From positions 124,001 to 188,000 of the forward strand of contig NZ_CP062159.1 in NCBI RefSeq assembly GCF_014844035.1: a stretch of DNA of 64,000 bases. Reading direction: 5' to 3'. The position numbers were made by a program, and so were the translations under genes. This stretch comes from Flavobacterium sp. MDT1-60 (GTDB lineage: Bacteria > Bacteroidota > Bacteroidia > Flavobacteriales > Flavobacteriaceae). Below the pieces are notes generated by a model. It was given only the letters and a program-made list of their open reading frames with translations. It had not been told where the DNA came from and searched no databases. Shown here in pieces: positions 26,118 through 26,611 of the stretch; the stretch's first letter is position 1; every line of letters starts with the position of its first letter.

Positions 26118-26193
26118 GGTACCTTAGCTCAGATGGTAGAGCAATGGACTGAAAATCCATGTGTCCCTGGTTCGATCCCTGGAGGTACCACCA
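26118..26193 (+). tRNA. tRNA-Phe (GAA anticodon), CCA encoded
   Basis: This is a 76-nt cloverleaf. The acceptor GGTACCT (26118-26124) pairs with AGGTACC (26183-26189), followed by discriminator A and encoded CCA. The anticodon arm is ATGGA-CTGAAAA-TCCAT with anticodon GAA at 26151-26153, and the T arm is CCCTGGTTCGATCCCTGG-like. The promoter is canonical and an intrinsic terminator follows at 26196. The segment from about tRNA position 42 to the terminator is duplicated 370-381 bp downstream, on the far side of the GIY-YIG gene. Confidence 0.97.
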
Positions 26194-26195
26194 AA

Positions 26196-26222
26196 ACCCA
26201 CTCAACTGAGTGGGTTTTTTGT
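26196..26222 (+). terminator. Terminator of tRNA-Phe
   Basis: Stem ACCCACTC (26196-26203) with GAGTGGGT (26208-26215), then a T run. A near copy with one weakened pair recurs at 26577-26600 after the tRNA remnant. Confidence 0.85.
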
Positions 26223-26241
26223 TTTTAATATTTTTTTACAA

Positions 26242-26529
26242 ATGCATTACTTATATATTCTGTACTCGGATTCATCTCAAAAATTTTATATCGGAGAAAC
26301 AAACAATATTGAAGAGCGTATTTTAAAACATCAAAATCATTCTTACCAAAATTCTTTTACCAAAATTGCCAATGACTGGAGAGTCCTTTTAACTTTTGAT
26401 TGCTTAAACAGAGAAGAGGCCATTTATTTGGAAAAGTTTATCAAAAGAATGAAAAGTAAAACTTTTAATAACAAAATAATCACAGATCCGTCTATTATAA
26501 AAGACATTTTATCTAAAAGAAAATCATAA
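26242..26529 (+). CDS. GIY-YIG (URI domain) nuclease nested between tRNA-Phe and a tRNA-Phe remnant
   Basis: The 95-residue protein is a stand-alone GIY-YIG domain. The diagnostic pair appears as LYIL at residues 4-7 and FYIGETNNIEERI at 15-27, with the catalytic Arg probably in the latter. NREEAIYLEKFIKRMKS supplies the metal-binding Glu region near residue 64. I chose the ATG at 26242. The frame is also open upstream without a stop through the terminator and the tRNA 3' half to about 26140, so a longer GTG-started form (26161) is formally possible. The TAA at 26527-26529 touches the first base of the duplicated tRNA segment. The arrangement suggests a minimal homing element specific for the tRNA gene; substrate and activity are inferred. 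Confidence 0.88.
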   Translation: MHYLYILYSDSSQKFYIGETNNIEERILKHQNHSYQNSFTKIANDWRVLLTFDCLNREEAIYLEKFIKRMKSKTFNNKIITDPSIIKDILSKRKS

Positions 26530-26611
26530 TGTGTCCCTGGTTCTCCCGAAGCCTCGGTACTGGAGGTACCACCAAAACCAACTCAACTGAGTGGTTTTTT
26601 TGTTTTTAATA
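26529..26611 (+). mobile_element. Decayed duplicate of the tRNA-Phe 3' half plus terminator (probable displaced target end)
   Basis: ATGTGTCCCTGGTTC at 26529-26543 repeats 26159-26173 exactly. CTGGAGGTACCACCAAAACC at 26560-26579 repeats 26179-26198 exactly, including the encoded CCA. The terminator stem and its T-rich tail to TTTTTAATA are repeated with two changes. Between the two identical blocks the 5-bp T-loop part of the real tRNA is replaced by 16 bp (TCCCGAAGCCTCGGTA), so this copy cannot fold as a tRNA half. It marks the far end of the unit carrying the GIY-YIG gene. Confidence 0.85.

What the first reader, a model, noticed from the sequence alone, without database searches (positions are those of the whole stretch)
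26118..26611. Minimal GIY-YIG homing element in tRNA-Phe that rebuilds the tRNA 3' half
A 95-residue GIY-YIG nuclease gene lies exactly between the functional tRNA-Phe 3' half plus terminator and a second copy of the same segment. Blocks 26159-26173 and 26179-26198 recur at 26529-26543 and 26560-26579, followed by a copied terminator. The ORF stop touches the first repeated base. The duplication starts in the 3' strand of the anticodon stem, so an incoming unit would have cut the tRNA gene there, supplied its own 3' half and terminator, and displaced the host end. Integrases do this at tRNA genes, but a one-gene nuclease unit doing so without an integrase would be a different and very small mobile system. 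From memory, similar small GIY-YIG genes occur near tRNAs in other Bacteroidota, which suggests a family.
Basis: partly seen in the sequence, partly recalled or inferred. Interest (0 to 1): 0.78.

Follow-up and report, generated by a model that had tools for sequence, protein, structure and literature searches.

The report
Tiny nuclease element rebuilding tRNA genes
A one-gene DNA element of a few hundred bases sits at a bacterial tRNA gene, gives that gene a new end and pushes the old end aside with a small hairpin in it; it belongs to a large, apparently undescribed family of such elements.

Summary
A 95-aa GIY-YIG gene (26242-26529) lies between intact tRNA-Phe plus terminator and a broken 3' copy plus terminator.

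Of 240 GIY loci collected (mostly Bacteroidota), 173 follow an intact tRNA, 15 show the mirror arrangement (broken 5' half, GIY, intact tRNA), and 43 of the other 52 have tRNA fragments. GIY clades follow the tRNA isoacceptor (25 label changes; shuffled mean 126). Arrays reach 8 units. GC-rich hairpins occur in 131 of 158 broken 3' copies (9 of 158 shuffled).

Displacement is seen directly at a tRNA-Met locus. In seven relatives the tRNA runs straight into its native terminator; in the filled genome that terminator follows the hairpin-bearing remnant, while the unit brings its own. Near-identical units sit at two tRNA-Met genes of one genome. Yet the Phe group mostly co-diverges with its neighbour gene.

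Best reading: a free-standing homing-type element that restores the tRNA gene it splits, a bacterial counterpart of fungal mitochondrial mORFs. Cleavage is untested. Nine paper searches found no description.

The parts
26118..26193 (+). intact tRNA-Phe(GAA)
   Evidence: ARAGORN; Rfam tRNA 66.6 bits on the same sequence in L007
26193..26230 (+). proximal terminator hairpin (arms 26193-26204 / 26207-26218) and T run, followed by an 11-nt linker to the ATG
26242..26529 (+). 95-aa single-domain GIY-YIG nuclease gene
   Evidence: PF01541; Y5, Y16, G18, R26, H30 and E64 in at least 125 of 127 relatives; model pLDDT 90.7
26529..26543 (+). left part of the broken tRNA-Phe 3' copy, first base shared with the stop codon
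   Evidence: identical to 26159-26173
26544..26559 (+). hairpin sequence TCCCGAAGCCTCGGTA replacing T-loop bases GATCC; one base off the inverted repeat found in 17 of 49 Phe remnant contexts
26560..26574 (+). right part of the broken copy (tRNA 3' end)
26575..26611 (+). second (distal) terminator copy
   Evidence: the 52-nt repeat covering it is 96% identical to the proximal one

Best explanation
A free-standing, homing-type mobile element with one gene. Shown by comparison: a unit consists of [tRNA 3' end, own terminator, GIY-YIG gene, short tRNA segment, hairpin] and lies between the tRNA and the displaced native tRNA 3' end with the native terminator; empty sites, arrays and near-identical copies at two tRNA genes of one genome exist. 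Inferred: an isoacceptor-specific nuclease breaks an empty tRNA gene near the place where the hairpin lies in the remnant; repair copies the unit from a filled allele, with the tRNA 5' part and the last ~25 nt of the tRNA as homology arms. The tRNA thus stays whole with the element's end and the host's own end is pushed downstream (in the mirror class, upstream). Unequal recombination between tRNA copies makes arrays and could restore empty sites. The hairpin spoils the nuclease site, or the fold, of the spare copy. How the intact tRNA gene escapes cleavage is not explained.
For: Precise empty sites: in seven relatives (L396-L399, L401-L403) tRNA-Met is followed at once by a GGGACAAAGA-type terminator and no GIY, while in the filled genome that terminator follows the hairpin-bearing remnant. 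Own terminator: ACACCACTT type proximal in 12 of 21 filled Met loci and in 0 of 38 unit-free ones; the AGCTTCAG type of unit-free relatives is distal in 6 of those 12. In Ala the CCGTA..TACGG type is distal in 10 of 24 filled loci and proximal in none. Two units 97.8% identical over 462 bp at different tRNA-Met genes of one genome, similarity ending at the tRNA 3' end. Transfers: Maribacter L301/L302 (GIY pS 0.15, neighbour gene 0.46); Ala L098/L260. tRNA-specific clades: 25 changes, shuffled mean 126, minimum 118. Purifying selection: dN/dS 0.09, the neighbour gene also 0.09. Empty Phe site in G053.
Against: GIY and coaX mostly diverge together in the Phe group (r 0.68 over 253 pairs; 5 of 20 splits shared, 0.2 by permutation), so movement between species is rare there. 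The intact tRNA keeps the presumed target. Remnants without GIY exist. At the window the two terminators are alike. No cleavage or mobility has been measured. No phage, plasmid or viral carrier was found with the window protein.
Confidence: 0.68

Rival explanations
1. Miniature integrative islets: the tRNA 3' repeats are attL and attR of a tyrosine integrase supplied in trans, and the GIY gene is cargo.
For: Duplicated tRNA 3' ends around an insert are the usual mark of integrase islands (general knowledge). In the own genome an integrase gene (PF00589) adjoins the Ala unit L004, whose tRNA-Ala lies about 23 kb away. Upstream sides are exchanged in L396 and L398, which points to islands at the same tRNA.
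Against: Pfam found no integrase in the four window genes around the unit that I scanned. In the mirror class the 5' half is the broken copy. GIY clades follow the tRNA type and every array unit carries its own GIY. A hairpin inside the att-like copy is not expected.
Confidence: 0.12
2. A host-retained gene: the unit is kept because it serves the cell, for example by guarding tRNA attachment sites against islands or by tuning tRNA copies, and spreads mainly by descent.
For: Co-divergence with coaX, dN/dS 0.09, wide occurrence (131 of 199 family genomes).
Against: Empty and decayed sites, copies at two tRNA genes in one genome, arrays of up to 8, transfers.
Confidence: 0.12
3. The protein works on RNA or on folded tRNA-like transcripts (a tRNA-specific nuclease or regulator), and the hairpin shields its own message.
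For: Hairpin stems are kept with a variable middle and recur in different tRNA types and in the mirror class. SLX1, whose PDB titles name branched DNA, is among the nearest solved folds, though with weak E-values (0.08 and above by Foldseek; 6e-4 to 8e-3 by profile).
Against: It does not by itself explain the exact displacement of native DNA. The arm-shuffle test for covariation was weak in Phe (127 pairs, shuffled mean 120.8, maximum 133) and Met; only the small Asn set reached the shuffle maximum.
Confidence: 0.06

Closest known systems
Fungal mitochondrial mobile ORFs (mORFs) in atp6/atp9/cox2/nad3 of Glomus and atp6 of Allomyces (PMC3630166, passages read)
   Same: A nuclease gene lies between a supplied new 3' gene end and the displaced native 3' end; the gene stays functional; relatives have the uninterrupted gene.
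   Different: There: mitochondrial protein genes, mostly LAGLIDADG (GIY-YIG in atp9). Here: bacterial tRNA genes, a single-domain GIY-YIG of about 80-100 aa, hairpins in the displaced end, arrays, tRNA-specific clades and a mirror 5' class.
Phage T-even SegB (PMC13096335, passages read)
   Same: Free-standing GIY-YIG homing endonuclease associated with tRNA genes; its locus amplifies in tandem with tRNA.
   Different: SegB is a phage gene, reported without isotype preference and acting on phage tRNA regions. Here each clade keeps to one tRNA type in bacterial chromosomes; no phage hit.
tRNA-targeting integrase islands (general knowledge)
   Same: A new tRNA 3' part is supplied and the old one displaced.
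   Different: No integrase in the unit, units of a few hundred bases, a hairpin in the displaced copy, a mirror 5' class.
UPF0213 single-domain GIY-YIG proteins (1zg2, 1ywl)
   Same: Nearest solved sequences and fold: 1zg2 at 2e-12 by profile and 4.5e-4 by Foldseek.
   Different: L001 and L002, the own-genome single-domain relatives that I liken to UPF0213 by size (not tested), fall outside the tRNA-linked clades and have no tRNA nearby.

Membership tests
Free-standing homing endonuclease gene | intact nuclease domain with its catalytic residues, under selection | tested here: met
Free-standing homing endonuclease gene | alleles without the gene at the same site in relatives | tested here: met
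Free-standing homing endonuclease gene | insertion destroys the enzyme's own target | tested here: inconclusive
   the broken copy carries a hairpin in 131 of 158, but the intact tRNA remains and the target is unknown
Free-standing homing endonuclease gene | break-driven copying into empty alleles | not testable with these tools
   only footprints seen
mORF-type gene-end-replacing element | element supplies a new gene end and the native end lies beyond the nuclease gene | tested here: met
mORF-type gene-end-replacing element | located in mitochondrial protein genes | tested here: not met
   tRNA genes in bacterial genomes
Integrase island at a tRNA gene | integrase encoded in the element | tested here: not met
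   the unit holds only the GIY ORF; no integrase domain in the four neighbouring genes scanned
SegB | phage gene next to phage tRNAs | tested here: not met
   no match to the window protein in phages or viral contigs
UPF0213 | sequence and fold relation | tested here: met
   a relation only, membership is not claimed

The most novel reading that the evidence does not exclude
A distinct class of minimal tRNA-gene element in which the hairpin is not a scar but a working cis part: the isoacceptor-specific GIY-YIG enzyme acts on the hairpin (as cruciform or dyad) to start copying of the unit into tRNA genes and its tandem growth, and either half of the tRNA, 3' or 5', can be the rebuilt one.
Probability: 0.25. 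Interest if true: 0.93.

Novelty: new variant of a known kind. Interest (0 to 1): 0.83.

Why it matters
If mobile as inferred, it is a very small autonomous element (one gene of about 80-100 codons, units of some 315-405 bp in arrays) that is widespread in a major bacterial phylum and lives in essential genes by giving back a working copy. The isoacceptor-specific clades make the choice of target by a nuclease testable by comparison, the arrays offer a record of repeated events, and the family explains tRNA-like pseudogenes and runs of small GIY-YIG ORFs in these genomes. It would also give a bacterial model for gene-end-replacing elements known so far (to my knowledge) from fungal mitochondria.

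Tried and rejected
Chance duplication or a stray ORF: rejected. Palindromes tied to GIY genome-wide: genus genomes with a strong GIY hit have more TCCCGANNNNTCGGGA per Mb (medians 2.35 versus 0.76; partial rho 0.37; 299 genomes), but this is not corrected for relatedness and has exceptions both ways (G093 and G128 without a hit have 40 and 36; 19 strong-GIY genomes have 0-1), so I do not rest on it. Of 15 such palindrome loci of the own genome that I read (43 sites in all), one, L214, is the Ala unit and three, L203-L205, lie within about 2 kb of the Asp unit; the others showed no tRNA setting by eye. Hairpin covariation by arm shuffling was weak. Carriage by phages, plasmids or viral contigs: no match, window protein only. 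Defence families: three weak PADLOC hits for the window protein, none for three paralogues. The side on which the intact tRNA lies changes 10 times on the tree (shuffled mean 14.6, minimum 12), so it is only weakly clade-bound. Selection bias: the profiles were built from tRNA-linked members and the loci are mostly the best-scoring rows, so the shares hold for relatives of these proteins, not for GIY-YIG genes at large. 39 further regions that I picked from listed rows, many of them lower-scoring (two overlap), had an ARAGORN tRNA on the same strand in 34 of 39; my notebook entry 5 says 'all', which is wrong, and its 37 and entry 6's 25 should read 38 and 24. Occurrence outside Bacteroidota is little tested: three Balneolaceae loci lie behind tRNA-Asp, one with a clear hairpin remnant, one possible, one decayed; of three Gardnerella-type hits the one read is a long, different protein.

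Full report
OBSERVATION. The copy is interrupted at 26544-26559 by TCCCGAAGCCTCGGTA, one mismatch from TCCCGANNNNTCGGGA and the only such match in the window. The exact pattern has 43 sites in the 5.56 Mb genome against 1 for the reversed control. Neighbours are a type III pantothenate kinase (coaX), an MFS transporter and an LptC-like gene; no integrase domain was found in the four genes scanned.

IN THE SAME GENOME. Of 11 PF01541 matches, 6 have tRNA sequence beside them: the window (Phe), L008 (Asn) and L005 (Asp) behind intact tRNAs, and L003 (Met), L004 (Ala) and L009 (Met-like) behind tRNA 3' fragments. L001, L002, L006, L010 and L011 have no intact tRNA in the 3.2 kb read, and L001 and L002 no fragment either. 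L010 and L011 are exonuclease fusions; L006 looks like UvrC by eye. L004 is explained by an island: an integrase gene adjoins it and the tRNA-Ala lies about 23 kb away.

THE FAMILY. A profile of five own paralogues matches 248 of 299 genus genomes at 1e-5, weaker relatives such as L001 and L002 included. A profile of 31 matches 131 of 199 family genomes and 180 of 296 phylum genomes at 1e-10. In all loci held, identical copies counted once, 240 rows carry a hit: 173 lie within 150 bp behind an intact tRNA, 15 are in the mirror arrangement and 52 unassigned (an array can be split over rows by the removal of identical copies). Of the 52, 43 have a tRNA fragment scoring >=32 on a side (shuffled maximum 27.7); the 9 others include L001 and L002. 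In the genus set the first unit starts 36-93 bp behind the tRNA (median 55; 90 loci with an intact tRNA within 100 bp). The tRNAs of the 173 are Phe 39, Met 31, Asn 28, Ala 25, Asp 17, Val 13, Gly 8, Arg 5, Pro 3 and one each of Leu, Thr, Ser and His. In 129 genus proteins the Met, Asp, Ala, Phe and Asn groups each form one clade (support 0.83, 0.98, 0.99, 0.91, 0.97), with the single Leu protein beside Phe. Over 186 proteins the tRNA label changes 25 times; 200 shuffles gave mean 126.3, minimum 118. Arrays reach 7 and 8 units in L348 and L349. Named hosts include Flavobacterium, Maribacter, Aureibaculum and Psychroflexus.

THE HAIRPIN. Of 158 broken 3' copies, 131 hold a perfect GC-rich inverted repeat with stem >=6 in the 70 nt around the GIY end; 9 of 158 shuffled copies and 4 of 152 far flanks do. 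The window's own copy is among the 27 that fail this strict test, because of its one mismatch. The place depends on the tRNA type: T loop in Phe, between anticodon and T stems in Asn, 3' anticodon stem and variable region in Met, anticodon arm in Ala and Val (reading by eye). Among Phe remnants 49 contexts have 21 variants, most of the form YCCCGA-N4-TCGGGR. Some ORFs end inside the tRNA segment (Ala, GGCTAG) or inside the hairpin (Asp, CCCGACTAGTCGGG).

THE MIRROR CLASS. In L222-L224 the order is upstream region, tRNA-Asn nucleotides 1-14, TCCCGATAGCTATCGGGA, GGTTAGAGCA, GIY, intact tRNA-Asn. L335, L352, L357 and L362-L364 show the like for Ser, Pro and Arg, several as arrays. So the rule is one intact tRNA and one hairpin-broken partial copy, on either side of GIY. 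Some of the 15 labels rest on modest scores (30 to 105). With the strict repeat search 9 of the 15 have stem >=6, 3 have stem 4-5 and 3 none.

DISPLACEMENT. In G083, L099 reads tRNA-Met, a terminator with ACACCACTTCACAAGTGGTGT, GIY, a remnant with TCCGCCACGGCGGA, then TAATTGGGACAAAGAAG. In seven relatives with flanks 75-95% identical the tRNA is followed at once by this last sequence (five) or a near variant of it (L402, L403), with no GIY (20 of 150 genomes searched had the flank). Five of the seven share the upstream side of L099; L396 and L398 have the other side, so this region has also been shuffled. A further relative, L400 (92%), showed no exact tRNA-Met. Over Met loci the ACACCACTT terminator is proximal in 12 of 21 filled sites and in 0 of 38 unit-free tRNA-Met genes. 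The AGCTTCAG type, common in unit-free relatives, is distal in 6 of the 12, another type in 2, undetermined in 4. In some loci, such as L050 and the window, both terminators are of one kind, which does not discriminate. In Ala the CCGTA..TACGG type is distal in 10 of 24 filled loci and never proximal, and is present in 4 of 18 unit-free tRNA-Ala genes (5 of the 23 printed carry GIY). In three Ala loci (L015, L025, L036) proximal and distal are alike. The empty Phe site of G053 has a terminator different from both of the window's. Maribacter L301 (Phe) has two kinds, the proximal one repeated between its two units.

MOVEMENT. Two units in G083, ~70 kb apart on one contig at different tRNA-Met genes, are 97.8% identical over 462 bp; similarity ends two bases past the tRNA 3' end on the right and about 20 bp before the tRNA on the left. 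Ala units L098 and L260 are 96-98% identical, with 72-88% upstream and 81-95% downstream in 100-bp bins. Maribacter L301 against L302: GIY pS 0.15, coaX pS 0.46, while over all pairs GIY pS exceeds coaX pS by 0.10 (SD 0.11). Against frequent transfer: GIY and coaX identities correlate (r 0.68, 253 pairs of 23 loci); 5 of 20 splits agree (0.2 by permutation), and 2 of 5 well supported GIY splits conflict with supported coaX splits. Median dN/dS is 0.09 for GIY and 0.09 for coaX in 157 close pairs. Losses and decay are seen in L122 (no unit) and L327 (first 16 codons left). Remnants without GIY exist.

PROTEIN. Y5, Y16, G18, R26, H30 and E64 are present in at least 125 of 127 relatives. The model is confident (pLDDT 90.7, pTM 0.80). 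By fold only UPF0213 1zg2 passes 1e-3 (4.5e-4); SLX1, I-TevI and UvrC follow at E 0.08-0.8. By profile UPF0213 2e-12 and SLX1 6e-4 to 8e-3. No match of the window protein in phage, plasmid or viral collections.

MECHANISM AND LITERATURE. The anatomy fits break-induced copying with the tRNA's own ends as homology arms. Shown: filled and empty structures, tract ends, terminators. Inferred: cleavage, its place, and drive. Unexplained: why the intact tRNA is not a target. Nine paper searches (open-licence PMC papers only) listed nothing on such elements in bacteria; I saw listings, and passages of PMC3630166 and PMC13096335. Fungal mORFs work alike in end replacement; SegB is alike in tRNA association and amplification.

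Noticed in passing
own genome G000:C1:1041608-1065164 (L004, L385): An integrase gene and about 23 kb separate tRNA-Ala from its GIY unit: an island seems to have entered the same tRNA and carried the unit to its far end.
   Followed up: partly
L005, own genome G000:C1:209494-212706, and 43 sites genome-wide: TCCCGANNNNTCGGGA palindromes are scattered through intergenic DNA of this and many Flavobacterium genomes (0 to 181 per genome), also inside other repeats; their origin is unknown.
   Followed up: partly
L182 (G000:C1:5132900-5133900), L179, L184, L186: Hairpin-bearing tRNA-Met remnants behind an intact tRNA without any GIY gene: decayed units, or non-autonomous ones.
   Followed up: partly
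L294 (Psychroflexus sediminis): A Phe-clade GIY protein lies between a tRNA-Cys copy with a T-loop hairpin and an intact tRNA-Cys, which looks like a change of target.
   Followed up: no
L225, L235, L317: ARAGORN calls some hairpin remnants tRNA-Stop, tRNA-SeC or tRNA-Trp, so annotations may hold false tRNAs from these elements.
   Followed up: no
L004:1258-1335: A Flavo-1 RNA (RF01705, 75.8 bits) lies next to the displaced Ala unit.
   Followed up: no
L327 (Flavobacterium sp. LC2016-23): The GIY gene behind tRNA-Phe is reduced to its first 16 codons, a recent loss.
   Followed up: partly
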